From: Microcystis aeruginosa Ma_SC_T_19800800_S464
Lineage (GTDB): Bacteria > Cyanobacteriota > Cyanobacteriia > Cyanobacteriales > Microcystaceae
Reading direction: 5' to 3'
DNA: 41,322 bases
NCBI GenBank assembly: GCA_007095785.1
Contig: SFBL01000156.1
Coordinates: 1 to 41,322 of the forward strand
Position 1 is the stretch's first letter; each line of letters begins with the position of its first letter. Of this stretch, positions 17,050-38,900 are shown piece by piece. Made by a program: the position numbers and the translations under genes. The notes under the pieces were generated by a model. That model was not told the DNA's origin. It worked only from the letters and a program-made list of their open reading frames with translations, and did no database searches.

Positions 17050-19770
17050 ATGGCAAAAGGAAAGGGTAATAGCGGACAATCTAAAGAGCCGAAAAGCTAC
17101 AATCACGGTCAGACACATCCCCAACGTCCCGATATTGGAACCGAGCCACATTTTAAAAAGAAAAAGTTGCCCGCTACCTACCGTTACGATTCTTCTATTG
17201 CGCCCGAATTAAGCTGGGATGAAAACCCGGCTAGGGAAAAAGCAGAAGCATTAATAGCCAAAATTTTAGAAGCTGAAAGTTTAGAAGAAGCTAAGGTTGC
17301 TGCCTCTCAATTAAAAGCTATGAGTCAGCCATTTTTAAACTGGGCTGGTAAGGCAGAAAGAGAATCGTTTGAAGTCCCAACCTTACCTCTATTCGTTCAT
17401 GAAAGACTATCAACACGAGCCATTATCGAAACTCTTAAATCTCACAAGATTGGCTCAAATCAGCTAAATCTTTTTGATTTATTCAACGATCCACAATGGT
17501 CAATATCAGACCAGATATTAAAAGCTTACGAGTATCAGGATAAATGGGTTAACCGGATGATTCTCGGTGACTCCTTAACTGTGATGAATTCCCTCTTGCA
17601 ATACGAGGGCATGGCTGGCAAAGTTCAGATGATTTATATCGATCCTCCCTACGGAGTGAAGTTTGGTAGTAACTTTCAGCCTTTTGTCAGGAAGCGGGAT
17701 GTTACGCATAATGATGATGGGAGTTTTACCCGCGAGCCAGAGATGGTTCAAGCCTATCGGGATACTTGGGAATTGGGTTTACATTCTTATTTGAGTTATC
17801 TACGCGATCGATTGTTGTTGGCGAGGGAATTGTTAACGGAGAGCGGTAGTGTTTTTGTGCAGATTAGCGATGAGAATGTTCATCATATTAGAGAATTAAT
17901 GGATGAGGTTTTTGGGGCTGACAATTTTTGCTCTTTCATTACATATAGGACTTCGGTTCCCTTAACTTCATCTGGTTTAGCTGAGATTAGTGATTATTTA
18001 ATTTGGTATGCAAAAGATAAATCAAGTTATAAATACAAAGATTTATTTTTATTTCGACAGTTAGACGATAAATCTAGATATTCTAATGTTGAACTAGCCG
18101 ACGGAAGTAGAAGAACATTAACGGCAGAAGAGAAAGCTAATCCAGAACTACTTCCCGTTGGTAGCCGAATATTTGCAGATGAAAATCTTGTATCTAGTGG
18201 ATATACTTCTTCTTGTACTTTTGATTTTGAATACAACAACAAAATTTATAGAACAAGTTCTGGGAAAAGTTGGAAAACCAATAAAATTGGAATGGAGAAA
18301 CTTGCCCAAGCAAGACGGCTAAAAGATACTGGAAAAACTCTAAGATACGTTATTTATCTTGATGATTTTCCAGTAATAAAATTAACAAACAATTGGCAAG
18401 ATACGGCTGGCGATCTAGATAAATACTATGTTGTTCAAACCCATTCTAAAGTTATTCAACGCTGTCTTCTCATGACCACCGATCCCGGCGATCTAGTCCT
18501 AGATCTAACCTGTGGAAGCGGCACAACCGCTTACGTGGCCGAGCAATGGGGTAGAAGGTGGATTACTTGCGATGTAAGCCGCGTTCCCCTAGCCCTAGCC
18601 CGTCAACGTCTATTAACCGCGACTTTTCCGTGGTATCAACTTAAGGACGGTAATTCCCCCGCTAACGGCTTTGTTTATAAACGAAAACAGAACAGTAAAG
18701 GTGAGGAAGTCGGGGGAATCGTCCCGCATATTACCCTAAAAAGTATTGCCAATAATGAACCGCCCGCAGAGGAAATTTTAGTCGATCGCCCCGAAACCGA
18801 TAACAGCATCGTGCGGGTGTGTAGCCCCTTCACGATCGAGGGAACGATCCCGCCCCCAGTTGATATGGACGCAGGTGAAGTTCCAGAGACAGAAGATACA
18901 GGGATGGAGATAAACGGCTCCTACCAAGACAGGATGCTAGAAATCCTGCGGAAATCTCCCGTTCTACGCTTGCCCGGTAATCGCACTCTCAACCTTTCCC
19001 AAGTGCGACAGCCTACCAAGTCCCGATCGCTTTCGGCCGAAGCATTGGTAAAAGCAAGCGAACTAGAAGGTGCAACCCTCAACGATGTGGTAGATGAGGC
19101 TCTAGAGGAAAACCTAAATAAACTGCCGCTCTCCCAGAAACCAGTAGCCTTCATATTCGGACCGGAAAATGGAGCGATTGCTGAGAGAACCGTATTCGAG
19201 GCTGCGAACGAAGCCCAACGTAAGCAATACGCCCACCTGTTCGTCATTGGATTTGCGATCGCCGCTAAAGCTCGTCAGTTCATCGAAAATTGTCAGGAAG
19301 CGATCGGTATCCCGGCAACCTATATTCAAGCCACTCCCGATATATTGATGGGCGATCTCCTCAAACACATGAGAAGTTCGCAGATATTCAGCACCTGCGG
19401 TCTGCCAGACGTAAAAATTCATCGTACTGGTGAAGGTAAATATCAAGTGGAGCTTTTAGGTTTGGATGTCTTCGACCCGATCACGATGGAAGTGGAATCC
19501 GAACCAGGTCGCAACGTCCCTGCTTGGTTCCTCGATACCGATTACAACGGCTTATGCTTCTATGTCAAACAGGCGTTTTTCCCCCGTACCAGCGCGTGGG
19601 ATTCTCTCAAAAAAGCTTTGAAAGGCAGTTATGACGATGAAGTATGGGAACACCTAGCGGGAACGATCAGCGCACCGTTTGAAGCTGGCGAGCATAAAGA
19701 AATCGCCGTCAAGGTGATAGACGATCGGGGTAACGAGTTATTAGTTATTGAATCTTTAAAAGGAGAGTAG
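17050..19770 (+). CDS. mod: Type III-like DNA methyltransferase (Mod)
   Basis: A 906-residue beta-class amino methyltransferase: catalytic DPPY at 198-201 in MIYIDPPYGVKF, then a large target-recognition insert, then the S-adenosylmethionine site DLTCGSGTT (about 486-494) in VLDLTCGSGTTAYVAEQWGR. The order catalytic motif first, SAM motif second is the beta class used by type III Mod (N6-adenine). The first 45 residues are basic and disordered. The C terminus (HKEIAVKVIDDRGNELLVIE) has homologous remnants at 6045-6107 and 23475-23522. It is the first gene of a three-gene operon with the small membrane gene and Res, and modifies host DNA to protect it from Res. Confidence 0.9.
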   Translation: MAKGKGNSGQSKEPKSYNHGQTHPQRPDIGTEPHFKKKKLPATYRYDSSIAPELSWDENPAREKAEALIAKILEAESLEEAKVAASQLKAMSQPFLNWAGKAERESFEVPTLPLFVHERLSTRAIIETLKSHKIGSNQLNLFDLFNDPQWSISDQILKAYEYQDKWVNRMILGDSLTVMNSLLQYEGMAGKVQMIYIDPPYGVKFGSNFQPFVRKRDVTHNDDGSFTREPEMVQAYRDTWELGLHSYLSYLRDRLLLARELLTESGSVFVQISDENVHHIRELMDEVFGADNFCSFITYRTSVPLTSSGLAEISDYLIWYAKDKSSYKYKDLFLFRQLDDKSRYSNVELADGSRRTLTAEEKANPELLPVGSRIFADENLVSSGYTSSCTFDFEYNNKIYRTSSGKSWKTNKIGMEKLAQARRLKDTGKTLRYVIYLDDFPVIKLTNNWQDTAGDLDKYYVVQTHSKVIQRCLLMTTDPGDLVLDLTCGSGTTAYVAEQWGRRWITCDVSRVPLALARQRLLTATFPWYQLKDGNSPANGFVYKRKQNSKGEEVGGIVPHITLKSIANNEPPAEEILVDRPETDNSIVRVCSPFTIEGTIPPPVDMDAGEVPETEDTGMEINGSYQDRMLEILRKSPVLRLPGNRTLNLSQVRQPTKSRSLSAEALVKASELEGATLNDVVDEALEENLNKLPLSQKPVAFIFGPENGAIAERTVFEAANEAQRKQYAHLFVIGFAIAAKARQFIENCQEAIGIPATYIQATPDILMGDLLKHMRSSQIFSTCGLPDVKIHRTGEGKYQVELLGLDVFDPITMEVESEPGRNVPAWFLDTDYNGLCFYVKQAFFPRTSAWDSLKKALKGSYDDEVWEHLAGTISAPFEAGEHKEIAVKVIDDRGNELLVIESLKGE

Positions 19771-19776
19771 CTATCT

Positions 19777-20328
19777 ATGTCAGATTCCTCAGAAGATAAA
19801 GGGTTTAATCTAAAAACGCTTATTGAGAATAACCCTGTTATATTTATTTGTACTGTTGCAATTACTGCTTTTACAATGGGATGGGGGGTACACGAAGCAA
19901 TATCCCACGCAACCAATAATAACCCCCTAATTGCATTTAGATCATGTGAGTTTAACGCCAAAGGAAAAATAGATTTTCCTTCTGATAATAGTAAAGTTTC
20001 CAGAACATTCCCTACAACAGGAAAAATATATGGAAAGATTGCAGAAGGCCATCATATATGGCTAGTTGTGAATCCTGAAAACTCTTTTGGTTGGTATCCT
20101 CAAGTTGGGGAAATTGCACCAGATGTGGGTAGTGGAAAATGGCAACAAAGTACTATTATCGGCACTGACAATGAGAGTAAAAACCGAAAGTTTAAGATTG
20201 CCCTAGTCGAAGTTGATAAAGATGGAAATTCCCAATTTAAAAACAATATAGCTTCTCGTAACTACCCAGAAGAGTTTTTGCCAGACAACACAAAATTCCT
20301 TTACACGATAACTGTTACCCGTCAATAG
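19777..20328 (+). CDS. Single-pass membrane protein inside the type III operon
   Basis: 183 residues. A short cytoplasmic N terminus (SDSSEDKGFNLKTLIENN) precedes one membrane helix (PVIFICTVAITAFTMGWGVH, about 20-40). The rest is a polar beta-rich domain outside the membrane with a pattern of KIYGKIAEGHHIWLVVNPEN, GWYPQVGEIAPDVGSGKWQQ and ALVEVD, resembling Ig-like or bacterial 'GxI.G....IW.VV.P' domains. It lies 6 nt after Mod and 5 nt before Res, so it is surely co-transcribed. No family is named with confidence. Its place between Mod and Res suggests an accessory defence function or a passenger gene. Confidence 0.6.
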   Translation: MSDSSEDKGFNLKTLIENNPVIFICTVAITAFTMGWGVHEAISHATNNNPLIAFRSCEFNAKGKIDFPSDNSKVSRTFPTTGKIYGKIAEGHHIWLVVNPENSFGWYPQVGEIAPDVGSGKWQQSTIIGTDNESKNRKFKIALVEVDKDGNSQFKNNIASRNYPEEFLPDNTKFLYTITVTRQ

Positions 20329-20333
20329 CCTTA

Positions 20334-23300
20334 ATGTCCTACGAAGTTGATCGCCCGATTCTAAACTCTCCCTTCGATGAACCATCGAAATACTGGTTTA
20401 TCCGAGAGAACTACGCCCCCGAATTGCGAGACGGTCGCCGTCCCTCGATCATCTATCCTCCTCGCGAGGGTCAATTTGATTGGGATTTGGGTCAAGTTCT
20501 CAAGCTGTCGCCACCAGAAGAATTTGCGCCGGGTTACGAAATGACCCTAGTGAACCGATTGAGAGAAAGAGTGAAAGAATGGCGATCGCAAAATTACCCC
20601 GGCGTGACCCGTACCACTTTAGATTTGCTTCGCCACTGGAACCGCAAGGACAGAGAGCAAAGGCTATTTTTTGCTCAGTGCGAGGCGGTAGAAACCATCA
20701 TCTTTTTAACCGAGTCCCGCCTTGACTTCCAGCAGGGAATCCATATCCCAGTCGATACGCCTCTCGATCTCGAACTCAAAGCTTTCATCCGCTATGCTTG
20801 CAAAATGGCCACGGGTTCTGGAAAAACAACGGTGATGGGAATGCTGGCCGCTTGGAGCATCCTGAACAAGGTAAACGATCGAAGTGATACCCGCTTTTCC
20901 GATGTCGTTTTGGTGGTCTGTCCCAACGTCACTATTAAAGGTCGTCTTCAGGAATTAAACCCCGCTAACGGAGAGGCCAGCCTGTACCGCACCCGTGACC
21001 TTGTACCCTCTCACCTGATGGACAGACTCCGGCAAGGAAAGGTTATCGTCACCAACTGGCACGTCTTCGAGCGTCGATCGCCCTCTACGGCGGGTGAAGA
21101 TGCAGCCAAAGTGATCAAGACAGGTGTAAAAACTATTTCTACCGAAGTTATCAAAATTGGTAAAGAGAACACCACCGCAAGGGGAACCCGTTACCTAACC
21201 CCCGAAACCCTAGAACAACAGAAGCGTACTGGACAGATCAAGGTACTAGAGGAGAAGAAAGACAAACAAGGCAATATAACCGAGGTCAAGGTGAGATCGA
21301 CCCGTTACCTAGAAAGCGAAGCCGCTTGGATACGCCGTATCCTCAACCAAGAGATCGGCAATAAAACCAGAATTCTCGTCCTTAACGATGAAGCTCACCA
21401 CGCTTACCGGATAGCTCCTAACGATAAGAGTGAGGAGGGCGAGGACGATGACGCTTTGGAATACGATCGCAAGGAATCGACGATCTGGATTGAAGGACTT
21501 GATCGCATCCACAAATACCGAACGATCAACCTCTGCATCGATCTGTCAGCTACTCCCTATTATCTTCGGGCTTCTGCTAAAGATGCAAATAAACCTTTTC
21601 CGTGGATAGTCAGTGATTTTAGCCTGATGGACGCAATTGAATCGGGTTTAGTCAAAATACCGCAACTTCCCTTGAGGGATACCACTGGAGCGATTACCTC
21701 CAATGTTGCTTACTTCAACATCTGGCAGTGGATCATGGGAAAAATGACCCCTAGCGAGCGAGGCGGCAAAACCAACAGCCCTAAACCAGAAGCAGTGCTA
21801 AAGTACGCCCAAAGCCCGATCGCCCTTCTTGCTGGACAGTGGGAACAAACCCGTGAGGAATGGTTGCAGAGTCCAGATGATCCCAGACCTCCTGTATTTA
21901 TCATCGTCTGCAAAAACACGAAAATTGCCAGATTAGTGTACGAATGGATAGCAGAAGACAAAAAACCGACTAATGTTGCTCCTTTTGCCACTAAATCACT
22001 TAAAAATACAGAAGCGGAAACTAACACTATCCGAGTCGATTCTAAAGTGGTTGAAGAATTAGAATCGGGTAACACGAAATCCGACGAATCCAAATGGATG
22101 CGCTTTACCCTTGATACCGTGGGGCTGGTGGACTGGCCAAAAGACGGGCAAGGGCGATCGCTATATCCCGATGGTTTTACCAGCCTTGCAATCAAAATAG
22201 GGAAACCCCTGCACCCGCCCGGTCGGGATATCAGGTGCATTATATCCGTGGGAATGCTTACGGAAGGATGGGACTGCCGGACGGTAACACACATCATCGG
22301 TATCCGTCCCTTCATGTCGCAACTGCTCTGTGAACAGGTAGTTGGGCGCGGACTACGGCGGCGTACTTACGACCTCGATGAAAATGATCGCTTCTCGGAA
22401 GAAACCGCAAAAATCTTCGGGGTTCCCTTCGAGGTAACGCCTTTTAAAGCCAATCCCAACGGGACTGCTCGTAAGCCCGAAAAGCGGAACCGCATCTACT
22501 CCGTAGCCCTTAAATCGCAGTATCGCATCGAATTCCCCAGAGTGGAAGGTTACACACAAGGAGTTCACAACAAAGTGATCGTTGATTGGGAAGCGATCGC
22601 TCCGATCACCCTAGACCCTAGCAAGATTCCCCCAGAAGTTCAGGTAAAAGCGACCCTTTCCAACAATCAAGGTCGTCCGAGTTTGAATGGGCCAGGCAAA
22701 TTAGAAAGTCTCGATCTGAGTCCTTACCGCAAAAATAGCCGTTTGCAGACGCTTATCTTTAAATTGGCAGGAGATTTAACCAAAACCTATTGCGAGATGA
22801 AAACTTGCGAGGCTCCCCCTCACGTTCTCTTTCCCCAATTATGGAAGATTTGCGATCGCTATCTAAAAACGAAGGTTAAAGTGATTAAGCCCTGTCAGAT
22901 AGAAGACGCTTGGCTCTCGCCCTATTACGGCTGGATGATTGAGAACCTAGCCACTGCGATCCACCCTGATACGAATGCGGGGGAAACTCCAGAGCTACCA
23001 CGCTACGAACCTCATTGCGGCAATGGTTCTACCGATGATGTCGATTTCTGGACAAGTAGTAAATCGATCTATCCAATCGAGCGATCGCATCTTAACGCAG
23101 TGGTTGCCGATACCCATCAGTGGGAACAGTCCGCTTCTTATCAAATAGACAATCATCCGATTACCGACGCTTTCGTAAAAAACGAGCAGCTAAATTTTTC
23201 GATTCCCTATCTCTATAACGGTCAAGAACGTGAATACTATCCAGATTTTATTATTCGATTGAAATACTCGGAACCCCGCTATCTTATCTTCGAGACAAAA

Positions 23301-23459
23301 GGGTATCGATACGATGGTACGGAGGAAAAGAAGGCGGGTGCGGAACGCTGGTGTAGGGCGGTTAACGCCGATGGTCACTTCGGCACTTGGGAATACAGGC
23401 TCTGTAAATCGCTGGAAGTCATTCAGGCGCTCGACGAGATCGCGAAGGCTCTCGATTAA
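20334..23459 (+). CDS. res: Type III-like restriction enzyme (Res): SF2 helicase with C-terminal nuclease
   Basis: A 1041-residue protein. Motif I is ATGSGKTT (159-166), motif II DEAH (352-355) in VLNDEAHHAYR, motif III SATP in IDLSATPYYL, and a late helicase motif QVVGRGLRR. The C-terminal PD-(D/E)XK nuclease is readable in YYPDFIIRLKYSEPRYLIFE TKGY with D971, E987 and K989. This is the helicase-nuclease subunit that cleaves DNA after ATP-driven translocation when target sites are unmodified. Its start lies 5 nt after the upstream stop, without a clear Shine-Dalgarno, so it is translationally coupled. A Mod-like remnant follows within 20 nt of the stop. Confidence 0.9.
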   Translation: MSYEVDRPILNSPFDEPSKYWFIRENYAPELRDGRRPSIIYPPREGQFDWDLGQVLKLSPPEEFAPGYEMTLVNRLRERVKEWRSQNYPGVTRTTLDLLRHWNRKDREQRLFFAQCEAVETIIFLTESRLDFQQGIHIPVDTPLDLELKAFIRYACKMATGSGKTTVMGMLAAWSILNKVNDRSDTRFSDVVLVVCPNVTIKGRLQELNPANGEASLYRTRDLVPSHLMDRLRQGKVIVTNWHVFERRSPSTAGEDAAKVIKTGVKTISTEVIKIGKENTTARGTRYLTPETLEQQKRTGQIKVLEEKKDKQGNITEVKVRSTRYLESEAAWIRRILNQEIGNKTRILVLNDEAHHAYRIAPNDKSEEGEDDDALEYDRKESTIWIEGLDRIHKYRTINLCIDLSATPYYLRASAKDANKPFPWIVSDFSLMDAIESGLVKIPQLPLRDTTGAITSNVAYFNIWQWIMGKMTPSERGGKTNSPKPEAVLKYAQSPIALLAGQWEQTREEWLQSPDDPRPPVFIIVCKNTKIARLVYEWIAEDKKPTNVAPFATKSLKNTEAETNTIRVDSKVVEELESGNTKSDESKWMRFTLDTVGLVDWPKDGQGRSLYPDGFTSLAIKIGKPLHPPGRDIRCIISVGMLTEGWDCRTVTHIIGIRPFMSQLLCEQVVGRGLRRRTYDLDENDRFSEETAKIFGVPFEVTPFKANPNGTARKPEKRNRIYSVALKSQYRIEFPRVEGYTQGVHNKVIVDWEAIAPITLDPSKIPPEVQVKATLSNNQGRPSLNGPGKLESLDLSPYRKNSRLQTLIFKLAGDLTKTYCEMKTCEAPPHVLFPQLWKICDRYLKTKVKVIKPCQIEDAWLSPYYGWMIENLATAIHPDTNAGETPELPRYEPHCGNGSTDDVDFWTSSKSIYPIERSHLNAVVADTHQWEQSASYQIDNHPITDAFVKNEQLNFSIPYLYNGQEREYYPDFIIRLKYSEPRYLIFETKGYRYDGTEEKKAGAERWCRAVNADGHFGTWEYRLCKSLEVIQALDEIAKALD

Positions 23460-23534: not shown

Positions 23535-26500
23535 TCACGAAAAACCATATTTCTTGAGAAGATTTTCTATTTTACTTTTATAAAACTTTTCATAAAATTT
23601 TAGCAGTCTATTTCTAATTTCAACGCCAATTTCAGTATTAATGCTTCTCTGAATTCCCTCATGCCATTCGGTAAAATCATGTGGAATTTTATTAAAATCA
23701 GCTGCATAAATCCATAATTGAATTAAGTTATCTAGCTTGTCTATTTCTTTCGCAATTTTTGAATTCAAGTTCTCTTCTCGCTCAAAATCTCCCCATAATT
23801 TAGCAATATAATTTAATTTTGCAAATCCATCATAAGTGTCTAGAAGCTCAATTTCTTTATAAATTTCTTCTTCGTTCTTTCGATCAGTTTCTTTTTTTCC
23901 AATTATATCTCCAGTTATTGCTTCAGATAGATCGTGAATTAATAGCATATCTATAATTTGCTTTTTATCATATTTACTGTCTTTGTTCCATTTATCAGGC
24001 AAAAGAAAAGATGCTATTAAATAAGTTCCATAAATATGATCTGCCACAGATTCTCCAACATGGCTATCAGGAACAAACATATTTCTATCTTCTTTGACCC
24101 AGCCCGCCCTTTTTTGAAATTTGATTTTATAAAACTTCAAAAAAATATTACCAATTATATCAAAATCTCTTTCTTGAAGATTTTGATATATCATACTTAT
24201 ATATTTATAAAGTTCGGGCGGTTGCACCTGATTACTATATTTAGAATCATATAAAAATAATTTGATTACATCAGAGACTAATGTGCGGCTTTCGTCATCT
24301 AGCGAGCCTTTGACTAAGCGATGTTGAACCAGAGAGCAAACTGTGTGTAATTCAATATTAATTAGAGGGTTTATTTGTCCATCACCAGAGCGAAGGCGAG
24401 AGCAGAGCTTTCTGATCGTTTTTGAACATGATCCCAAACTATCTTTATCAAGTAATTGAAGTGGTTCATTATTCGGATCTTCATTAGGCTCATCTCCATA
24501 ATATTCCAAATGAAATCCTCTATTTAGCATATCTGCTTGTTTATCCTTTAAGAGAGTCAAAACATATTCCTTTTGAGCATCTCGATCATTCAAATACGAA
24601 AGGCTAACATAAACAGTTCTTAGTAAAAAAATATGTAGATTTAAATCATTAGTATTCAATTTCAAATTATTGCTATAATCACTTTTTAGTGTTTCTTTAA
24701 AATCTTTCAGTATTAATTTTGAACGGATCGCACATCTTTTATTTGTTAATCTTCCTGCAATATAGCAAGCAAATGCCTTTGAATAGGGATGAAATTCATC
24801 ATTTTTTAACACTATTTTGGTAGCATTTAAAGCTTTTTCTTGATATCTTGCTTTTTTGTTAATTATTTCTTTACATAATCTATTAATTCTATTTGGTTGT
24901 ACATATTTCAAAACTGTATCAATTTTTTTAAAATCATTATCGTTGCTATCGTCCACAATTTTAAAAAAATTATAAATTACATGACGTGCAACCAAATAAT
25001 CGTTAACTTGAGGATGACCATGAGCAAGCTCTAGAAGAAAGTTATCAATTTCTCCGCGTTCAAGTTTTTGATATCCTTCGTAAAAGGCAATCTCTGCCGA
25101 ACGATCAAGAAGTTTTTCAGTATTAAAGTCTGGAGTATAATGCTGATATTCCTGTAAAAATTCTCGGCAGTAGGATTTTAATAAATCAGACAAATACAAA
25201 TCTGGTGAATTTGCTTTTATTTTGCATTTTAAGAGTCCTAATAAAAAAATGTCAACATCTTCAATTTTAAATTTCTCAATCATACTAATAAAGTCTTTGG
25301 CACGTTTCTCTAAATCTATAATTTCTGCACATCGATAATTTGAAGAAATTTTTAAGAAGTCAGTAATAAATTTGCTTGCATCCTGATTTCTAATGTTAAT
25401 AGAGTTAAAAACCAATGTTTCATCTGGATCGATGCTAATAGCATCTGGTGGATAAGTGTTGATAGCATCTCCAGTCTGTCTAGTGGCAATAACAAATTTG
25501 CATTTATTGCGTTCTGGATAATTATCTAACAAGTATGAAACTACATCCTCTTCGCTTTCAGAGCATCCATCATAGCCATCAAGAATGATTAGGAATTTAT
25601 TTCGGTGTTGGGTTTGAATTAAGTGCGTAATTATTTGTTTATAATCAACATTTGGATCGTAGATCGCAGAGTGTTTATTTAAAATTAAATTTGTAATTCT
25701 TTCTCGGTAGGTTAACCCTAAAAAAGGAATTAAATTGCTCCTGCATAGTTTATGCAGGTTAATAAAAATGGGTATTAGATTATCTTCTAAATTGTTTTTA
25801 TTGTTTTTACTTTTCTCGTAAAAATACCAATATAAGAGATTCAAAAATGAAGTTTTTCCTGTTCCCGATATTCCCTTAATTAGCAAAGGTAATTGGCTAT
25901 TTGCAGAGATAATTTTTTCGCTTATATGCTCAAATAAATTATCAGTATTTAAAACTTGATTATCAGAATTGCAAATATAAGTAAATAATTTGCTGTAATA
26001 ACTTAAATTATCTTCTTGAACGCACGATACACTATTATAATACTTGTCAAGATGATTATTCAAAATATAGCTATTTAAAGACTGTAAATAATCTTCCTTT
26101 GCATCAAGTAAAGGCAAGCTATCTTGCACTTTTAACCATGTTTTCAGACGATCAAAGATAGTCTGTATAGATATTGCTAAACCGCCCTCTTGCATATATC
26201 TAGATGTAAGCATACCTACTACTTTATATTCGCCATCAATGTAGGAAAAAATAGGAGAGCCACTTTCTCCTCCCGTAAACTTTTGAAAATCTACCAAAGT
26301 AGATAATTTTAATCTTAAACCCAACTTATCAAAGATATTTTTGCCTATAATCTCTCCTGTTTTTTCACTTCCAGAAGTACACTCACTATCTCCAAATCCA
26401 AAGCTCTTAAATTTGCCTGATTCAATTAGATTCGGATGCAAAAAAACTTTTCCTAATTTATATCCTTTAAAGTCTAGAATAGCGAAATCATCTCCATTAT

Positions 26501-26693
26501 CACCTCCAATATATACTTGTTCAACTTTTTCTCCTTTTATTCTAATATTCTTCAATCCGCCTGCTTGTGTTATAACGTGTGAACAAGTCAATAAAAGCCC
26601 ATCTTCAGAGATAAAAAAACCCGTACCAACAAGAGAGTTTGAAGGATTCTTTCTAATTTCGACAACGCAATCACATATATCTTCCCACTTCAT
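23535..26693 (-). CDS. Trypsin-like protease - NACHT/STAND NTPase - HD hydrolase fusion (NLR-like)
   Basis: 1052 residues from ATG 26693 (AGG 8 nt upstream). Domains in order: a trypsin-like serine protease (about 1-190) with an intact triad H39 (TCSHVI), D69 (DDFAIL) and S144 (GGESGSP); a STAND/NACHT NTPase (about 265-500) with Walker A GISGTGKT (274-281) and Walker B LIILDGYDG (D372), then KFVIATR; a helical middle part (about 500-870) including RGFHLEYYGDEP; and a C-terminal HD domain with H886, H920-D921 and D985 in ADHIYG, LLIHDLSEAITGDI and KEIDKLDN, closest to YfbR/HDDC2 5'-deoxynucleotidases. The layout matches bacterial NLR-like conflict proteins. Proteolysis or nucleotide hydrolysis as the lethal or protective output is inferred. 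The gene is visibly AT-richer than the type III operon, implying separate origin. It follows the Trypco1 gene by 91 nt. Confidence 0.85.
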   Translation of the reverse strand: MKWEDICDCVVEIRKNPSNSLVGTGFFISEDGLLLTCSHVITQAGGLKNIRIKGEKVEQVYIGGDNGDDFAILDFKGYKLGKVFLHPNLIESGKFKSFGFGDSECTSGSEKTGEIIGKNIFDKLGLRLKLSTLVDFQKFTGGESGSPIFSYIDGEYKVVGMLTSRYMQEGGLAISIQTIFDRLKTWLKVQDSLPLLDAKEDYLQSLNSYILNNHLDKYYNSVSCVQEDNLSYYSKLFTYICNSDNQVLNTDNLFEHISEKIISANSQLPLLIKGISGTGKTSFLNLLYWYFYEKSKNNKNNLEDNLIPIFINLHKLCRSNLIPFLGLTYRERITNLILNKHSAIYDPNVDYKQIITHLIQTQHRNKFLIILDGYDGCSESEEDVVSYLLDNYPERNKCKFVIATRQTGDAINTYPPDAISIDPDETLVFNSINIRNQDASKFITDFLKISSNYRCAEIIDLEKRAKDFISMIEKFKIEDVDIFLLGLLKCKIKANSPDLYLSDLLKSYCREFLQEYQHYTPDFNTEKLLDRSAEIAFYEGYQKLERGEIDNFLLELAHGHPQVNDYLVARHVIYNFFKIVDDSNDNDFKKIDTVLKYVQPNRINRLCKEIINKKARYQEKALNATKIVLKNDEFHPYSKAFACYIAGRLTNKRCAIRSKLILKDFKETLKSDYSNNLKLNTNDLNLHIFLLRTVYVSLSYLNDRDAQKEYVLTLLKDKQADMLNRGFHLEYYGDEPNEDPNNEPLQLLDKDSLGSCSKTIRKLCSRLRSGDGQINPLINIELHTVCSLVQHRLVKGSLDDESRTLVSDVIKLFLYDSKYSNQVQPPELYKYISMIYQNLQERDFDIIGNIFLKFYKIKFQKRAGWVKEDRNMFVPDSHVGESVADHIYGTYLIASFLLPDKWNKDSKYDKKQIIDMLLIHDLSEAITGDIIGKKETDRKNEEEIYKEIELLDTYDGFAKLNYIAKLWGDFEREENLNSKIAKEIDKLDNLIQLWIYAADFNKIPHDFTEWHEGIQRSINTEIGVEIRNRLLKFYEKFYKSKIENLLKKYGFS

Positions 26694-26784
26694 TTTTAAC
26701 ACCTACAAGATAAAATTAGTTTTTCCGAACTTGCCATGTAAAGTTATCAGTAGTCAATTCTCGTAAAACTTGTGTGGCAAGGCT

Positions 26785-27135
26785 TTAAGTTGTCGAACCA
26801 TAAATTTTATGTAAATCCCAAGTAATTTTGACTTTTAGAGACGCTTGAGCAGAAGTCTCAACAACATAAATGTTCCCCTTCCCTGTGAAACTTAAGCCAA
26901 ACTCAACCTCAGCATTTTTAGCTTTGCCCTCACGATATAAGGCTTCAAAAGCTTCTGTCAAAGGACGGCATCCATTAATAATAGTATATTTAATATCATC
27001 AAACTTCTCTCCTACCTTGTCGATGACAATATCTCCCGTCTTAGCCAGAGGATTGATTGTTTGTTCTGGAACATCCACTGCTACTAGAATAGTTCCCTCT
27101 TGTCCGACATTAAGTTCAATCAATTTCTGTGTCAT
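26785..27135 (-). CDS. Trypsin-co-occurring domain protein (Trypco1/CU044_2847-like)
   Basis: 116 residues from ATG 27135, chosen because GAGG lies 8 nt upstream (an upstream in-frame start at 27177 lacks one). The pattern QKLIELNVGQEGTILVAVDV, DKVGEKFDDIKYTIIN, then AEVEFGLSFTGKGNIYVVET and SLKVKITW is the small beta-alpha Trypco1 domain, known to sit beside trypsin-containing NTPase conflict genes. It lacks catalytic residues. I infer a partner, regulator or substrate of the protease in the next gene, with which it forms a two-gene operon. 82 nt of AT-rich spacer separate the two. Confidence 0.75.
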   Translation of the reverse strand: MTQKLIELNVGQEGTILVAVDVPEQTINPLAKTGDIVIDKVGEKFDDIKYTIINGCRPLTEAFEALYREGKAKNAEVEFGLSFTGKGNIYVVETSAQASLKVKITWDLHKIYGSTT

Positions 27136-27177: not shown

Positions 27178-27554
27178 TATTCATCATAAAGAGCAGTTAG
27201 GGACCTGCGTAGGAATAATATCCCAGCCAGACAGTCGCTCTGTAGAAGAATCAGACAAGCCATAAATGGTACATTATCAAAGCGCAAGTCCCTTATTTAT
27301 TTCACAATTTCTTTAGCTCTCTCACGCCCTACGGTTCATGGTAACATGGCTTAAGTTTTTATTAAATAAGATTTGAGTCAATTATTTTTATTCTTTAACT
27401 TTCTTAATATATTTTTATATTTAACTAGATGAGAGCGTTTACAAATGTACAACAAAGTATTTATTTTATTTTTTTAATAAAAGCAATTACTGAATTTATC
27501 ATCTTGCAATTCCCAAAAATTAAGTTAATCTTAATACCACAATATCAATATAGT
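27178..27554. other. AT-rich intergenic region
   Basis: About 380 bp without a supportable gene. It probably holds the reverse promoter of the Trypco1-NLR operon; GATATTATTCC at about 27216-27226 on the reverse strand resembles a -10 box. Nothing else is recognised. Confidence 0.5.
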
Positions 27555-27643
27555 GGTTCTTCGTTACTTGGTATGGTTTGATCGAGGGGACTAAATCAAC
27601 TAAATCCTTATCTGGCAAGAGATTTAATTGATTATCTCGTTCT
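27555..27643 (-). mobile_element. Partial copy of the ISL3-like MITE of 13523-13709
   Basis: Starts GGTTCTTCGTTACTTGGTAT and follows the reverse complement of the 13523-13709 element for about 88 bp, including TAAATCCTTATCTGGCAAGA, then diverges. No matching second end or target duplication is found, so it is truncated or a related element. Confidence 0.65.
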
Positions 27644-27702
27644 CTGCAAGAGCCTATTTATAACGTGGAAAAAGGGATTTAATGTCGGTTGGGAACCTCA
27701 AA

Positions 27703-28076
27703 GGCTCTTCTCGATTTTGTCTGATAATTTTTGCTTATGGAATCGTGAAATGCTGATCGGGCAAGACTTTCAGCACTATTTTGACGGATATTCTATCAGT
27801 ATAGACCCTGACAGGGGGACAAGCTGGCTGAACTCCTTACAGCATAAGCTTTTTGGGGTGTTCGAGCGAAAAAGTTCGATGCAGATCACTCCCCATTGTT
27901 GATAAAGATTTCTAATAAGCTCGCCCAAATCCCTGATTCTCTCGTTAGCTTTTTGGCTGAAAGGGATGTATCTATTTGTAACTGAGGAGCCTAAAAACCT
28001 TTGTGGACAACGCTTTGAGATGTCTTGTCCCCCTGTCAGGTATAGACCTCGTTTCCACACAGAAACCAGAAGAGCC
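27703..28076. mobile_element. ISL3-like MITE interrupted by a second MITE
   Basis: The ends GGCTCTTCT (27703-27711) and AGAAGAGCC (28068-28076) are perfect inverted repeats, flanked by CCTCAAA at 27696-27702 and 28077-28083. Removing the inner element (27808-28039) and one duplication copy leaves about 133 bp, a plausible MITE size. It has no coding capacity. Confidence 0.75.
27808..28039. mobile_element. 232-bp MITE nested in another MITE
   Basis: The terminal inverted repeats CTGACAGGGGGACAAG (27808-27823) and CTTGTCCCCCTGTCAG (28024-28039) are perfect over 16 bp. The 9-bp duplication GTATAGACC flanks it at 27799-27807 and 28040-28048. It was inserted after the surrounding element. The family of the parent transposon is not recognised. 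Confidence 0.85.
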
Positions 28077-28210: not shown

Positions 28211-28936
28211 ATGGAATCTAATGATGAAAGAACCGAAAATAGCGGCGAATTGGTCTCTATCGGTGGGAAGCTTCCCCTATTCCAAGAATTGCGAACCTCA
28301 CAACTGTTAGATTTTTTCGTTGTCTTGAGCGCTAACAAGGAGAAAAATCTAAGGAAGCGAATCAATCAATGGCTTTATCCTAAAACCAGGCCGGGGTTCT
28401 ACATGGAGATCAAGCCGAACCTGCACCTTGCCTACGCCGATCAGAGGGACGGTCACGGTTCTCAACATTGGTGGCGGTTATTTTTCGATCAGGATTGGCA
28501 GGAGAGGATCGAGCAAATCGTCAGGGGAAGCGCCCTCGTCGTCGGACAGAATACCAGCAACGGTCACAATGAAACGACCGAGTGGGGCGGGATGTACTTC
28601 CGATCGCCCGTGGAGATAAAAATCGCCGAAGCGTTGGATAGACGGGGGGTACTATTCTTCGGCAATGCTAGAGGTCGGATAAGTAGTCAGGGTTCTCCAG
28701 TATCGGCATCTAGAATGACGGGAAGACTGGAGATAGATTTCTTGGTATTCTATAAAGGCAAGTGCATCAGCTTGGAAATCGATGGTAAACACCATCAGGA
28801 AGATGCACAGACCCATCGCGACTACATAAGAGACCGGTTGCTTTTACGAGAAGGAATCGCCACCGCAAGGTTTACAGCCCAAGAATGTATGGAGTCCCCC
28901 GACGCGGCGATCGAGGAGTTCTTGAATCTGTTTTAA
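28211..28936 (+). CDS. DUF559/Vsr-like PD-(D/E)XK nuclease
   Basis: A 241-residue protein. The C-terminal third has the DUF559/Vsr-like pattern: SPVEIKIAEALDRRGV (E135), LEIDFLVF (D176), ISLEIDGKHH (E189, D191, H194-H195) and D..RDRLLLREGIATARFT. This is a single-domain endonuclease fold of the very-short-patch type, here as the tail of a longer protein. Residues 20-110 are a separate domain with many W, Y and F (GFYMEIKPNLHLAYAD; HWWRLFFDQDW). The gene is 26 nt upstream of the Nudix-like gene and likely co-transcribed. Defence or repair use is inferred. Confidence 0.65.
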   Translation: MESNDERTENSGELVSIGGKLPLFQELRTSQLLDFFVVLSANKEKNLRKRINQWLYPKTRPGFYMEIKPNLHLAYADQRDGHGSQHWWRLFFDQDWQERIEQIVRGSALVVGQNTSNGHNETTEWGGMYFRSPVEIKIAEALDRRGVLFFGNARGRISSQGSPVSASRMTGRLEIDFLVFYKGKCISLEIDGKHHQEDAQTHRDYIRDRLLLREGIATARFTAQECMESPDAAIEEFLNLF

Positions 28937-33797: not shown

Positions 33798-33909
33798 CGC
33801 ACACCACCCGAAAACCGTTATTGTTGTTGCGGTTGTCGCGGCGGTTGTTGTTGTTACGGTAAGCGGAACGGCAGTTATTTGGATTGTTGTACCAAGAACC
33901 GCCCCGCAG
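33798..33909 (-). other. DGR template repeat (TR)
   Basis: A 112-bp non-coding template of a diversity-generating retroelement, on the reverse strand 21 bp after the reverse transcriptase stop. Read as protein it would give LRGGSWYNNPNNCRSAYRNN then many N codons (AAC/AAT). It matches 35949-36060 over its whole length except at adenines: 22 of 30 TR adenines differ, against 1 of 82 other bases. The 272 bp on its far side (33526-33797) hold no gene I can support and may be the rest of the TR transcript. Confidence 0.95.
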
Positions 33910-33930
33910 TCGGGTTCGCCTATCCCTTCT

Positions 33931-34989
33931 TCAATGCCTCACGAATGTGAGGGAATCGAATATCTGTTTTCTTAGTTGCCAGGTGTCACCGTGTTCTAGA
34001 TGTGCCATCCAGCTAGTCAGCGCTCGTTCTACATCTTGCCATTCAATTGTACCGATGGCATAATCTTGTTGCAATCGTCTGAGTCTTCTCCTACCCCGAT
34101 GAAGGTTACTATTCCTGACGCGAACTCGGTCGGGTAGAATACGAAAACCGAGGAAACTAGGACCGTATTTAGTGGCAAAAAGTTGACTTTTAATCGGGTG
34201 AATTTTCAGCCTCAGTTTGATTAAGTATTCCTCAATTTTACCTCTGGCTTCTGCGAGAAAATCTCGGTCATCGGCAAAGAGAGCAAAATCATCAACATAC
34301 CTGACATACTTGGGAGTTCTAATAACTTCTTTGATAAAATGATCGAGTCCATTTAGATAAATATTAGCAAAAAATTGACTGGTTAAATTGCCGATGGGCA
34401 GACCTCTTTTTCGTTCTATAGGAGTCAGCAAGTCATCGCTAGGGAAGTAATCAATGACAGCTTCCTGTTCGTTGCTATTATCGATAATAGTATCGATCAA
34501 CCAGAGGGTATCGGGACATTTAATTTTGCGCCGTATCAGTGCTTTAAGGATTTCATGGTCGAGGGAAGGAAAGTATTTTTTAATATCACACTGAAGGATA
34601 TAAGAACTAGAACGGGCAAAGCCGATGAACCGTTTCAAAGCTCTATGAGTTCCAAATCCAACCCGATTGGCATAGGAATCATGAATAAAAGTGCCCTCGA
34701 AAATGGGGGCGATGATATTACAAAGAGCGTGATGGACTACTCTATCCCGATAAGGTGCGGCCGATATCAGGCGACTTTTGGGGTCTATGATGTGGAAGGT
34801 TCGATAGGCTCCAGGATGATAATTTTTATCCTTTAGCTCCCTTTGCAATTGCATCAGTTCCCTTTCCAGATTAAAATTAAAATCTAGAACGTTATCCCTA
34901 AAACGCTTGCCCGATTGTGCTTTACGAGCGGCAAGAAATAGATTATCAAATTCGATAATTTGGGAATAGAGATTACCGTAACGCTTCAT
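33931..34989 (-). CDS. DGR reverse transcriptase
   Basis: A 352-residue retron/DGR-type reverse transcriptase. Motif 3 is [13 protein letters not shown] (D135), motif 4 is [18 protein letters not shown] (about 196-213), and the catalytic YVDD is at 231-234 in [10 protein letters not shown]. The IGNLTSQ form is typical of DGR enzymes. It copies the TR RNA while misincorporating opposite adenines, then the cDNA replaces the variable repeat. It is the last coding gene of the cassette, with the TR directly after it. Confidence 0.95.
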
Positions 34990-35014
34990 TTAAATTTCCG
35001 ATGATAACAATAAA

Positions 35015-35368
35015 TTAATCTGGTTTTGCTTCTCGTTCACGTTGGGTTTTAATCCAGTTACCTAATTCTCCTCCCAATTCATCGATTAACTGACTGACGT
35101 ATTCATAGCGTTTCAGATCGATCAACTTAAAATCTAATAAAAGTCGGGTCTGATGTCTGAGAACGGCTAACTCGGTGTTGATATATTCAAGTTTGGCAAG
35201 CTTACTTTTGGCAAATTTAGCCCTGATTAAATTCTCTAATATGTTATAAAGTTGGTTGATTACCCTGTCCCCTATCGTGAACTTGTGAACCCTGGGAAAA
35301 CGCTCTATAATCGGAACGTACCACTTTACCAAATCATAACACTTTTGAATCACCGATAATTCTTTCAT
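35015..35368 (-). CDS. avd: Avd, DGR accessory variability protein
   Basis: A 117-residue four-helix-bundle protein (KCYDLVKWYVPIIERFPRVH, KFTIGDRVINQLYNILENLI, YINTELAVLRHQTRLLLDFK), of the Avd/S23 ribosomal-insertion-like family. Avd pentamers bind the reverse transcriptase and TR RNA and are needed for adenine mutagenesis. 25 nt upstream of the reverse transcriptase, same strand, as in most DGRs. Confidence 0.9.
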   Translation of the reverse strand: MKELSVIQKCYDLVKWYVPIIERFPRVHKFTIGDRVINQLYNILENLIRAKFAKSKLAKLEYINTELAVLRHQTRLLLDFKLIDLKRYEYVSQLIDELGGELGNWIKTQREREAKPD

Positions 35369-35848
35369 TGCCTTAATAACTGAACTTCCCCCGTATAAAC
35401 ATACTAGCTATGGCTAAAAGTCTTACAGAGCCTGAGTTAAAGCAATATAATACTAATGGACTACTGGACACAAAATCCTGAAGTCCTTACGCAGATAGGG
35501 TTTGAGGCAAAATTTTTCAAATTTGACCTTTCGACCATTATAGCTTGTTTCGGGGCAGAAAACCAGCAAAAACATGGCTACAGAGCGAATCCCTTACTCT
35601 AGAGATTAATGACACTATCTGTTAAAATCAGGTTAGCGATCACTATACAGCCAACTCTAGGTCATCGCTCTACTCCAGATACAGTCAACGGTACAGCCAT
35701 TTTCAAGCGAAAAATGTACCCAGTAGCCCCTTTTCAATTTTTTCTGAGAAGCGACCTGCGGTAAGGGTTTTGTTAATTTTTTAGTATTTCTGTATGGGGG
35801 AAGTCCAGTAATAAAATTTAACATTAACGCCAATTTTCCGCAAAAAAT
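35369..35848. other. Intergenic region between DGR target and avd
   Basis: About 480 bp with no supportable gene. It may contain a promoter for avd and the reverse transcriptase on the reverse strand, but no clear -35/-10 pair stands out. Confidence 0.4.
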
Positions 35849-35851
35849 CGA

Positions 35852-35867
35852 CCCGCCGTGAGGCGGG
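35852..35867 (-). terminator. Hairpin downstream of the DGR target gene
   Basis: CCCGCC (35852-35857) and GGCGGG (35862-35867) form a 6-bp GC stem with a 4-nt loop, followed on the reverse strand by TCGATTTTTT. It can act as a rho-independent terminator of the target gene. A stem-loop just downstream of the variable repeat is also needed for retrohoming in studied DGRs, so it may serve both. Confidence 0.65.
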
Positions 35868-35928
35868 AAAGAAAAGAAAAGAGAAAAAATAGGGAATGAG
35901 GGTAAAAAGGGAAAAAAGAGAAAAAGGG

Positions 35929-38900
35929 TTACAGAGTCCTCCCGGCAACGCACACCACGCGAAAACCGCTATGGCTGTCGCGGAAGCCGCGGCGGAAGCT
36001 GAAGGCACGGAAAGCGGAACGGCAGTAAGTCGGATCGAGGCACCAAGAACCGCCCCGCAGAGGAGAACAATTATCATTCCCATTTTTTGTCCAAGCACTT
36101 CCATCCCTTGGCGCACCCTCATAATTATCATGCCAATCATCAGCGCACCATTCCCATACGTTCCCGTGCATATCATACAGCCCAAAGGCATTAGACGGAA
36201 ATTGTCCTACGGGAGTCGTTTCTTCTCGGTATTCTCCTTTGGGTTCATCTGCATAAGTTTTAGTAGCATTATAATTAGCTAAATCTCCCGTGATAGTTTC
36301 CCCAAAGTGAAAGGCGGTTGTTGTCCCCGCTCTACAGGCATATTCCCATTCCGCTTCGCTCGGTAGCCGGTATTCCCTTCCCGTCAACTTGGATAATCTC
36401 GCGCAGAACTCGATCGCATCGTACCAGTTGACTTTTTCCACGGGACGGCGATCGCTATCGGGACGGTCTTTAAAATAGGCTGGGTTAGATTCAAGGTCTT
36501 GTTTAACTTTTAAATCGGCACGGGAGGCGATCGCTTGCCACTGTGCCTGGGTGATGGGATATTTACCCATGTAGAAAGAGGGAAGGGTAACTTGATGTTG
36601 AGGTTCTTCCTGGCTAAAGTACTGCCAATCAAATTTCTTCACCAGTCTTTCGATTTCCTCGTCTTCTGTTCCCATCATAAATTCGCCACTTGGGATGGCA
36701 ACCAGATCGAGAATAACTTCGCCAGAGAGAGTTTCAGTGAAGTATTGAGCTTGCTTAAGCTCTCGTTTGATTTCTTTGCCCCTACTGTTGACGGTAATGG
36801 TTTCAAACTCAAATGGCTCTTCGCTTTCTTGTGCCAAAGATTGAACAGTTCTAAATGATCCTCTAGAAGCCAAAGCTGCAATGGCATTTCTCACTAAATC
36901 TTCTCCCTCTCGATCTTGATTTCTTTGGGCGGCTGAAGCAGCCAAGCGCAATCTAACTAAAGGGTCTTGATTCGCTTCAATCCAGCGCCAATAAGGACTT
37001 AATGAAGCTGTCATCCTCGCACTGCGGCAGATTTGCTCTGAACTCAATTCACTCTCATAGCCCCATTGAAGAAACAAGATTAAATTTGAATTTTCTTGCA
37101 GAAGTAATTGCTGTCCCTTTTTATCATCTTTATTATCAAAAAGCCTGAGAACTCTGTCACAGAAATTGCTATAATAAAAATCTAAAACAAGAGGCGCGAG
37201 ATCGTCAATTCCTTTTCCTTGCTGCAATTTACTTTCTGCGTAAGTGCGGGCAGGTTCGGGTAAAGTTAATCTCCAGTCAGAGGCAGTAGGAGACTTTTCT
37301 GCCATTGAAAGCTTAAGCAACTCCCCCAAAGCTTTCTGACCACTTCTTCCCCCAATAGCTCTAGCCAAATCGCGACTCAATCCACTCGGAAAGAAAGCCA
37401 ATAAAGGAAATATATCTTGACCCTCTACCGATAACATTTCAAAAGAGCGCTCTAAAGTTATTCGCAAACTTCTTTCTTTTCTTTCTTCAGAAGAATAAGA
37501 ATCAAGAACTTCCAGCGGTTCAATGTTTAATTCTTCACACAATATCTTGAGAGTAAATTGATTTTCTCTCATATAAGATGCCGCTAGTTTTATAGGTAAG
37601 GGATAACCATCAAGAAACTTGATTAAAAGATTAAAATCTTCCTCCAAATCTTCATTATCTCCCCATTGAGCTTGTGAAGGAGCATACTTTCTAAATATTT
37701 TTCTTGTTTCTGATGCTCCCATACTGCAAACTTCTTCTTGATGGCAATAACGAATGTCCCTGACTAGAGAGTCACGGGAAGTCAGCAGCAATCTTAAATT
37801 AGGACATTGTTCTAATAGCAAGTTCAAAAGGTGAATTAGTTCATTGGATTCTTTCTCAATCAATCTATCCAAATCATCGAGAATCAAAAAAATCCTACTA
37901 TTTCTTAATTCTCTCTCTAAAACAAAACTCTTTAATCCAAGACTCTGTTTAACTTTAGTAATTAGCGTTCCTACAGAATCAGTATCGCGCAAACTAATAA
38001 ACCAAACTCCATCACGATAGCGTTCTCGTTCATGTAACCACCTACCAATGGCATAAGCTAAGGCTGTTTTGCCTATTCCTCCCATACCATGCAGGGCAAG
38101 ACAGCGTTGTTTTTCTTCTACCAGAACTTTAATTACTTGATGTATTTCTTGTCTGCGTCCGACAAAGTTGGCATCTTCACGGGAAATATTAGTATTTGAC
38201 CACTGGGGATAGATAACACTGCGAGAATTAGCTCGTTCTATGATCAGTGATTTATTGTGGGAAGATTGGGGTAATAATCGAAATTTAAAAGCTTCATCGA
38301 AATTAACTCCTAGCTCAAAAGTTTCAGAGTTAAAGATTGTTTTTAATTTATCATCAAGTTTAACTGCATTGCGGCTCACTAAAAAAGCATTAACAATCTC
38401 ATCTTGATTGAATAATGCTTGATAAAGTCGTTGCGAGAAGCATCGGGCCGCTACATCGAGAATTTTATCCTCAGCGTCAATTCCTATCACATGAGGCACT
38501 CCAGCTTTAACAAAAGCTTGGGCTAGTTTTTCTGAATGACAGGCATTTAATAAAGCTAATTGACAAGGTGGTTGCTTCTGATTTGATAAAGCAATTTCTA
38601 GTTCTTTTTCAGTAAAAGAACGAGTAATTCCCACCTCATCTTCTAACACTAGGGCTGTACTATCCACCTCTCTCATTCCATGACCAATGAAATGAATAAT
38701 TAGTGGTTTGACCCGACTGGAAAAGGCATCTTGCAGCGTCTTGGATGTGGCTACTTTAACTACTATCTCCACTGCTATAGGATGAGATATATCCTCTAAT
38801 ACTGAAGCGATCGCTTCAATTTCTGGCTGAATTGCTAAATTCTCTACTGGTTCTAAGTCTTCTTTGAGTAGAGGGGCTGAAAATAAGATGAGAATTTGAT

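What the first reader, a model, noticed from the sequence alone, without database searches (positions are those of the whole stretch)
23535..27135. Trypsin - NACHT - HD fusion with a Trypco1 partner
One protein carries an intact serine protease triad, a P-loop STAND NTPase and a C-terminal HD phosphohydrolase, and its upstream neighbour is a Trypco1-type domain known from such conflict operons. Protease and nucleotidase at opposite ends of a NACHT hub would give two possible outputs, an unusual combination.
Basis: partly seen in the sequence, partly recalled or inferred. Interest (0 to 1): 0.87.

Follow-up and report, generated by a model that had tools for sequence, protein, structure and literature searches.

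The report
NLR-like sensor with nucleotide-enzyme tip
A bacterial immune-type switch protein has a protease at one end and an intact nucleotide-cutting enzyme at the other, and distant relatives keep the nucleotide enzyme but vary the front domain, which suggests the nucleotide enzyme is part of the sensing core rather than a second weapon.

Summary
One 1,052-aa ORF (23535-26693, minus) carries Trypsin_2, a NACHT-like NTPase and a C-terminal HD_3 domain, with a Trypco1 gene 91 bp upstream. It is not a stray fusion: nine other distinct proteins from several phyla share NTPase, helical superhelix and HD in that order. Their N-termini differ: metallophosphoesterase, nucleoside phosphorylase, none, or unassigned. 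The trypsin-Trypco1 pair also occurs elsewhere, with trypsin-TIR-AAA_35 proteins. Seven HD catalytic positions are intact in 10 of 10 proteins, while a canonical Walker A survives in 5 of 10. HD is therefore the constant module, at the end where NACHT proteins carry their sensor; the protease looks like the swappable output. That last step is inference: no activity or defence was tested, and HD as a constant second effector remains the main rival. I found no description of this architecture in the searched library. Verdict: new variant of a known kind (bacterial STAND/NACHT conflict protein), rare, directly testable.

The parts
26785..27135 (-). Trypco1 gene, 116 aa, probably in one operon with the next gene (91-bp gap)
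   Evidence: Pfam Trypco1 E 1.3e-13; NCBIfam NF041216; 52-58% identical to the Trypco1 directly upstream of trypsin in L003-L005 (52-55% in the full alignment)
23535..26693 (-). Trypsin-NACHT-helical-HD protein, 1,052 aa
   Evidence: single open frame; single match in its own genome
26211..26627 (-). Trypsin_2 domain, residues 23-161; H39, D69, S144
   Evidence: Pfam; alignment with L003-L005
25473..25886 (-). NACHT-like P-loop NTPase, residues 270-407
   Evidence: Pfam NACHT below cut-off; Walker A and B; fold search
25851..25874 (-). Walker A GISGTGKT, residues 274-281
   Evidence: canonical in 5 of 10 family members
24129..25373 (-). family-specific helical superhelix, residues 441-855
   Evidence: alignment A3; model of residues 459-854, pLDDT 82.4, pTM 0.86, all helical, ARM/HEAT-like by fold search
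24492..24524 (-). NRGFHLEYYGD motif, residues 724-734
   Evidence: its conservation is inflated because parts of the motif were the search patterns
23688..24128 (-). HD_3 domain (HDDC2/YfbR/DatZ type), residues 856-1002; R862 H886 H920 D921 E924 D929 D985
   Evidence: Pfam E 1.7e-22; HDDC2 4dmb by sequence E 1.4e-9 and by fold Z 18.4, rmsd 3.0, 183 aligned; the seven positions in 10 of 10

Best explanation
It is a bacterial NLR-like (STAND/NACHT) conflict protein. The N-terminal trypsin, with its partner Trypco1, is an exchangeable output cassette. The NACHT-like NTPase is the switch. The C-terminal module, a helical superhelix ending in a catalytically competent-looking HDDC2/DatZ-type HD phosphohydrolase, is the invariant receptor end. 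Most likely mechanism: the HD site binds and turns over a (deoxy)nucleotide whose level changes in infection; occupancy or turnover alters the superhelix, releases the NTPase to oligomerise, and clusters or frees the trypsin domains, which then cleave a target in the cell. Shown: domain content, modularity from both sides, HD site conservation. Inferred: sensing role, ligand, oligomerisation, protease target, phage defence.
For: (1) HD is constant and N-termini vary over 10 distinct proteins. (2) N-terminal replacement on a supported branch: L010 and L013 cores are 45% identical, sisters at 100/99, N-termini without BLAST alignment, while L010 and the next branch L014 share theirs at 2e-9. (3) The securely identified alternative N-termini match known effector models: L002 metallophosphoesterase, PADLOC 'Effector, Endonuclease' 8e-18; L008, 'Effector, PN-superfamily' 6.8e-10 and candidate PDC-M60C 1.1e-21. 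(4) Trypsin plus Trypco1 is an independent cassette: 3 of 3 trypsin-only relatives in the phylum sample have Trypco1 directly upstream and all three are trypsin-TIR-AAA_35 proteins; none of the other nine NACHT-HD loci has it within its held flanks at E <= 1 beyond one 14-residue match at 0.92. (5) Six metal ligands plus the presumed catalytic Arg are RHHDEDD in 10 of 10, against canonical Walker A in 5 of 10. Numbering by the 4dmb alignment, roles from DatZ (PMC8065100 sections 11 and 13). 7 of 7 predicted positions fall among 10 invariant columns of 143, chance 6e-10 if columns were exchangeable. HD residues were not part of the search patterns. (6) Model: NTPase to superhelix resembles RdrA (Z 10.6, rmsd 4.8, 259 aligned), NOD2 (Z 10.3, rmsd 7.1, 345) and NLRP3 (Z 9.9, rmsd 9.5, 364). 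(7) In bNACHT proteins the C-terminus senses and the N-terminus is the effector (PMC12169576 passages). (8) Precedent for an HD nucleotide enzyme that reads a phage-raised nucleotide: Clover CloA, which responds to raised dTTP (PMC12265719 abstract).
Against: A strictly conserved active site fits an enzyme doing work at least as well as a sensor. L006 has no N-terminal domain and no obvious partner effector in its flanks, read by eye, so HD may be output enough there. The Walker A is not canonical in 5 of 10 members, which weakens the classical ATP-switch model. NLR-fold Z values near 10 at rmsd 5-9.5 are modest; AAA+ proteins score alike and Cdc6/Orc1 higher (Z 11.1). Several N-termini are unassigned: L007/L009, L012 (DUF4145 below cut-off), L013; 'TIR-like' for L010/L014 is by eye and found no Pfam or PDB support. 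No neighbourhood or experiment shows defence for the relatives. The swap argument rests on one supported branch and 10 proteins.
Confidence: 0.45

Rival explanations
1. HD is a constant second effector: on activation it destroys (deoxy)nucleotides, starving phage replication, while the N-terminal domain adds a variable second attack.
For: HD active site intact in 10 of 10, including the 5 with non-canonical Walker A; L006 lacks any N-terminal effector; PHROG match to dATP triphosphohydrolase, E 1.7e-4; dNTPases are antiphage effectors (PMC12265719 abstract).
Against: It needs every family member to keep the same second weapon in the sensor position while exchanging the first; no other candidate sensor is left in the protein except the helical superhelix.
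Confidence: 0.3
2. HD is a brake: it removes a nucleotide signal or bound nucleotide that would activate the receptor, keeping it silent until infection saturates it.
For: Enzyme at the receptor end with the full catalytic set; nucleotide inhibition of a defence enzyme has a precedent in Clover (abstract).
Against: No second-messenger synthase was recognised by eye among the ORFs listed near the gene; not searched systematically.
Confidence: 0.12
3. HD is a retained fold with only a structural role.
For: None positive; possible in principle.
Against: 7 of 7 catalytic positions invariant in 10 of 10 proteins whose cores are 18-30% identical, apart from two closer pairs at 45% and 76%.
Confidence: 0.04
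4. Not an anti-phage system but another regulated stress or cell-death switch.
For: Relatives do not lie in clear defence islands in the fetched flanks, read by eye; patchy and rare.
Against: Two N-termini match defence-effector models; a type III restriction-modification system is next door and a DGR-diversified CHAT-NB-ARC-FGE gene 9 kb away.
Confidence: 0.09

Closest known systems
Bacterial NACHT (bNACHT) / NLR-related antiphage proteins
   Same: N-terminal effector, central NACHT-like NTPase, C-terminal helical region; fold resembles NOD2/NLRP3; tripartite scheme in PMC12169576 (passages)
   Different: Ends in an HD phosphohydrolase with complete active site; NACHT Pfam score below the cut-off; Walker A canonical in only 5 of 10 members
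Trypsin-Trypco1 conflict modules (PMC7159879, passages)
   Same: Trypsin_2 with Trypco1 as direct neighbour
   Different: Trypsin is fused to a NACHT-HD core; the passages seen place Trypco1 in vWA-MoxR ternary systems, of which I recognised no component here
HDDC2 / YfbR / DatZ HD phosphohydrolases
   Same: HD_3 profile, fold (4dmb Z 18.4; YfbR 2par Z 14.7) and all metal ligands
   Different: Those are small free-standing enzymes; here the domain is the C-terminus of a receptor-like protein
Clover CloA (PMC12265719, abstract and outline)
   Same: HD-superfamily nucleotide enzyme tied to defence and to sensing a nucleotide
   Different: dGTPase with a partner nucleotidyltransferase, no STAND NTPase named; homology not tested
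STAND proteins with a fixed C-terminal globular domain and variable N-termini (PMC8195603, passages)
   Same: Variable N-terminus, STAND centre, fixed C-terminal domain
   Different: The C-terminal domains named there with STAND NTPases are glycosyltransferase-4 or FGS/lectin-like; HD is mentioned as a C-terminal domain in the NCOA6 clade of TRADD-N proteins, not with NACHT, in the passages seen

Membership tests
STAND/NACHT NTPase receptor | NACHT profile above curated cut-off | tested here: inconclusive
   21.6 bits against 26.7; relatives L002 23.7 and L012 26.5, also below
STAND/NACHT NTPase receptor | Walker A and acidic Walker B | tested here: met
   GISGTGKT and ILDGYD in the window protein; Walker A canonical in 5 of 10 members
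STAND/NACHT NTPase receptor | NLR-like fold from NTPase into helical C-terminus | tested here: inconclusive
   RdrA Z 10.6, NOD2 Z 10.3, NLRP3 Z 9.9, but Cdc6/Orc1 Z 11.1 and several AAA+ proteins near 10
STAND/NACHT NTPase receptor | stimulus-dependent oligomerisation, phage defence | not testable with these tools
   needs experiment
Trypsin-Trypco1 module | trypsin-like domain with intact triad | tested here: met
   Trypsin_2 6.9e-9; H39, D68/D69, S144 conserved with 3 relatives
Trypsin-Trypco1 module | Trypco1 as immediate neighbour | tested here: met
   26785-27135, 51.8 bits against 24.6
Trypsin-Trypco1 module | vWA-MoxR (VMAP) ternary partners | tested here: inconclusive
   none recognised among the 13 window proteins scanned against Pfam or PADLOC; the other ORFs were read by eye only
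HDDC2/YfbR/DatZ HD phosphohydrolase | HD_3 profile above cut-off | tested here: met
   80.5 bits against 22.5
HDDC2/YfbR/DatZ HD phosphohydrolase | six metal ligands and catalytic Arg | tested here: met
   RHHDEDD in the window and 9 of 9 relatives, mapped through the 4dmb alignment; that R862 is the counterpart of DatZ R19 is inferred from position
HDDC2/YfbR/DatZ HD phosphohydrolase | fold | tested here: met
   4dmb Z 18.4, rmsd 3.0, 183 aligned of 188
HDDC2/YfbR/DatZ HD phosphohydrolase | 5'-nucleotidase or dNTPase activity | not testable with these tools
   needs assay

The most novel reading that the evidence does not exclude
A family of bacterial NLR-like receptors whose sensor is itself a working deoxynucleotide phosphohydrolase: the receptor tests the nucleotide pool through an enzyme active site and hands the result to any of several exchangeable effectors (protease, metallophosphoesterase, nucleoside phosphorylase and others).
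Probability: 0.4. Interest if true: 0.8.

Novelty: new variant of a known kind. Interest (0 to 1): 0.62.

Why it matters
What bacterial NACHT and other STAND proteins sense is hard to discover (so says PMC12169576, passage). Here the presumed sensor end is a recognisable enzyme with known chemistry, so candidate ligands (dNMP, dNDP, dNTP) can be tested at once. If the HD does sense, these proteins would link surveillance of the nucleotide pool to proteolytic, phosphoesterase and other outputs through one conserved core.

Tried and rejected
Phage or plasmid carriage: viral contigs gave no relative in three protein or alignment scans and no match to one motif pattern. The 72,556 plasmid records gave only HD-only hits, 11 records, for the whole window protein, nothing for a Clostridia core and nothing for Trypco1 at E <= 1e-4. 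The 50,697 phage records gave one HD-only hit.

Local spread: none of the 7 other same-genus genomes listed has the core (also, where 2 of them are listed).

Alignment A4, mixing trypsin and core rows, was discarded because MAFFT scattered the trypsin rows. L011 was dropped because L002 lies inside it, letter for letter. L003-L005 were left out of the core counts because they match in the trypsin part only. HD-only database hits were not used. A weak partial hit in the L012 genome (L021, profile positions 44-113, E 2.3e-9) was not followed. The N-terminus of L013 found no convincing match in the PDB, that of L010/L014 none; the L007, L010 and L013 N-termini none in PHROGs. A SARM1 ARM-domain resemblance of the superhelix (Z 8.7, rmsd 6.0, 245 aligned) is at the level that helical repeats reach without kinship and is not used. 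The best viral-library match of the core model, a siphovirus protein named as NLR-like (Foldseek E 1.5e-4, TM 0.25), was not followed. The invariance of NRGFHLEYYGD is not used as evidence, because parts of it were the search patterns.

PADLOC: no model matched superhelix plus HD in the window or in the 9 relatives. In the window the hits lie in the trypsin part (PDC-M35A 2.3e-8, RT-Protease_XI 2.3e-7); in L002, PDC-S60 covers residues 32-604, N-terminus and NTPase (1.3e-14).

Literature: searches listed no paper that I could see describing a NACHT-HD architecture; PMC3710099 and PMC12715507 were seen in listings only. Kibby et al. 2023 (recalled, bNACHT clades) is not held, so a mention there cannot be excluded.
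Full report
Observation. The minus-strand ORF 23535-26693 (ATG; a GTG nine bases upstream gives 1,055 aa) encodes 1,052 aa without interruption. Pfam gives Trypsin_2, HD_3 and YfbR-like above their cut-offs and NACHT below its cut-off. H39, D68/D69 and S144 of the trypsin part are conserved with three relatives. Directly upstream, 26785-27135, lies Trypco1, the only one found in the genome. The stretch 23535-27135 has GC 0.311, against 0.474 at 19-23 kb and 0.468 at 28-33 kb. The protein has a single match in its genome, itself.

Source. I call it cyanobacterial because it shares a phylum with L002, whose DNA lies letter for letter inside a contig titled Candidatus Gastranaerophilales, an order in the Cyanobacteriota/Melainabacteria group of the NCBI taxonomy.

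Relatives. A protein search of 386 genomes of the phylum found 5 with a match: the window's own, three that match only in the trypsin part, and L002, which matches from the NTPase to the C-terminus and is metallophosphoesterase-NACHT-HD. A scan of 84,980 species genomes with two short motif patterns gave 77 stretches, of which 9 encode relatives; with L011 dropped as a duplicate of L002, 10 distinct proteins remain with the window. Besides the window's phylum the record titles name Clostridia or Clostridiales (four), Cytophagales and Thiohalocapsa; L008 and L009 are titled 'uncultured bacterium' and 'Bacterium D16-51', L009 being 76% identical to the Clostridiaceae L007. The count is a lower bound set by the patterns. 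With the family-specific helical region as query, 2 of 386 genomes of the phylum (one the window's) and 1 of 195 of its order (the window's) were positive. In samples around other members the only positives were the centre genomes: 1 of 398, 1 of 120, 1 of 150, 1 of 148, 1 of 147. The family is rare and patchy.

Modularity from both sides. N-termini: trypsin (window), Metallophos at 8.2e-12 (L002), PNP_UDP_1 at 3.8e-8 (L008), none (L006), a DUF4145 match below cut-off (L012), and unassigned domains (L007 and L009, 60% identical to each other; L013; L010 and L014, related to each other at 2e-9 and TIR-like by eye only). The L002 and L008 N-termini match PADLOC effector models. L010 and L013 cores are 45% identical and sisters at 100/99, with L014 next at 100/100, yet the L013 N-terminus has no BLAST alignment with that of L010, while L010 and L014 share theirs: a replacement of the N-terminus on a fixed core. 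Conversely, trypsin plus Trypco1 occurs in L003, L004 and L005, with Trypco1 directly upstream in 3 of 3; all three proteins continue into TIR and AAA_35. No Trypco1 was found in the other nine NACHT-HD loci, within flanks of varying length. The window protein is the meeting of an exchangeable output cassette and a conserved core.

The HD domain. Sequence and fold place it with HDDC2 (4dmb E 1.4e-9; the only 7 Foldseek matches at E <= 0.001 are HDDC2 chains; Z 18.4, rmsd 3.0, 183 aligned) and near YfbR (2par Z 14.7). PHROGs gives dATP triphosphohydrolase at 1.7e-4. In DatZ, metal A is held by H34, H66, D67 and D119, metal B by E70 and D75, and R19 stabilises the intermediate; HDDC2 is reported to coordinate metals identically (PMC8065100, sections 11 and 13 read whole). 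Counting along the printed 4dmb alignment, HDDC2 H49, H77, D78, D143, E81, D86 and R32 fall on H886, H920, D921, D985, E924, D929 and R862; H77, D78 and D143 are the residues mutated in entries 4l7w, 4l7e and 4l1j (titles). The step from DatZ to HDDC2 numbering is by motif order, my inference. All seven are identical in 10 of 10 proteins. In the same proteins the Walker A motif G-x4-G-K-[ST] is intact in 5 of 10. HD residues were not part of the retrieval patterns; NRGFHLEYYGD was, so its conservation is not counted. W865 (9 of 10, F in L008) may correspond to the sugar-reading W20 of DatZ, but the spacing differs and this was not resolved. The Lys three residues before D985, a possible counterpart of the phosphate-neutralising K116 of DatZ, is K in 5 of 10, else N, Y or R, so substrates may differ within the family.

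Structure. The core model (863 aa, 10-row alignment) has mean pLDDT 74.6 and pTM 0.73. Apart from HD, its NTPase-to-superhelix part aligns with RdrA, NOD2 and NLRP3 at Z about 10, with Cdc6/Orc1 at 11.1 and other AAA+ proteins near 10. The helical region alone (pLDDT 82.4, pTM 0.86) is an ARM/HEAT-like superhelix without a decisive match.

How it most likely works. In bNACHT proteins the C-terminus senses, the NACHT oligomerises and the N-terminus acts (PMC12169576 passages). Read in that frame, superhelix plus HD is the receptor, trypsin the output and Trypco1 part of the output cassette (adaptor, inhibitor or substrate, undecided). I propose that HD engages a nucleotide altered by infection. 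Clover shows that an HD dNTPase can respond to a phage-raised nucleotide (PMC12265719 abstract). Shown: anatomy, modularity, site conservation. Inferred: ligand, gating, oligomerisation, protease target and defence.

Against this. The site may be conserved because it is a constant effector; L006, with no N-terminal domain, and the non-canonical Walker A in 5 of 10 members point that way. I put that rival at 0.3.

Novelty. Searches of the held library and passages of PMC7159879, PMC8195603 and PMC10907252 show trypsin, Trypco1, STAND-GT4 and STAND-FGS combinations, but no NACHT-HD family. The subscription paper on bNACHT clades (recalled) could not be read. PADLOC has no model matching superhelix plus HD in the window or the 9 relatives. 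I rate it a new variant of a known kind.

The odds did not change.

Noticed in passing
33798-39329, minus strand: A diversity-generating retroelement: reverse transcriptase 33931-34989 (RVT_1 5.2e-21), bAvd 35015-35368 (6.9e-20) and target CHAT-NB-ARC-FGE-sulfatase 35929-38982. TR at 33910-33831 and VR at 36061-35982 match in 61 of 80 bases and all 19 mismatches are at template adenines; the best pair at any unrelated offset fitted 61 of 80 by the same rule. Kind known from PMC10907252 (passages).
   Followed up: yes
17050-23459, plus strand: Type III restriction-modification: Mod 17050-19770 (PADLOC 3.4e-155), a 183-aa ORF without a Pfam match between, and Res 20334-23459 (ResIII 1.1e-7).
   Followed up: partly
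27197-28040: The region upstream of Trypco1 is a nest of short high-copy repeats, with copies listed in all 12 genus genomes searched; MITE-like inverted ends seen by eye.
   Followed up: partly
28211-28936, plus strand: 241-aa protein with weak nuclease similarity (REase_MTES_1575 below cut-off, DUF559 just above), on the other side of the repeat nest.
   Followed up: no
L003, L004, L005 (L031): Trypco1 followed by a trypsin-TIR-AAA_35 protein in three genomes of the window's order: two potential effectors in one NTPase protein.
   Followed up: partly
11281-13432, minus strand: TrwB-type coupling ATPase (11281-12387, 4.4e-9) and YdjM-like protein (12377-13432, 2e-25): possible remains of an integrative or conjugative element.
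   Followed up: no
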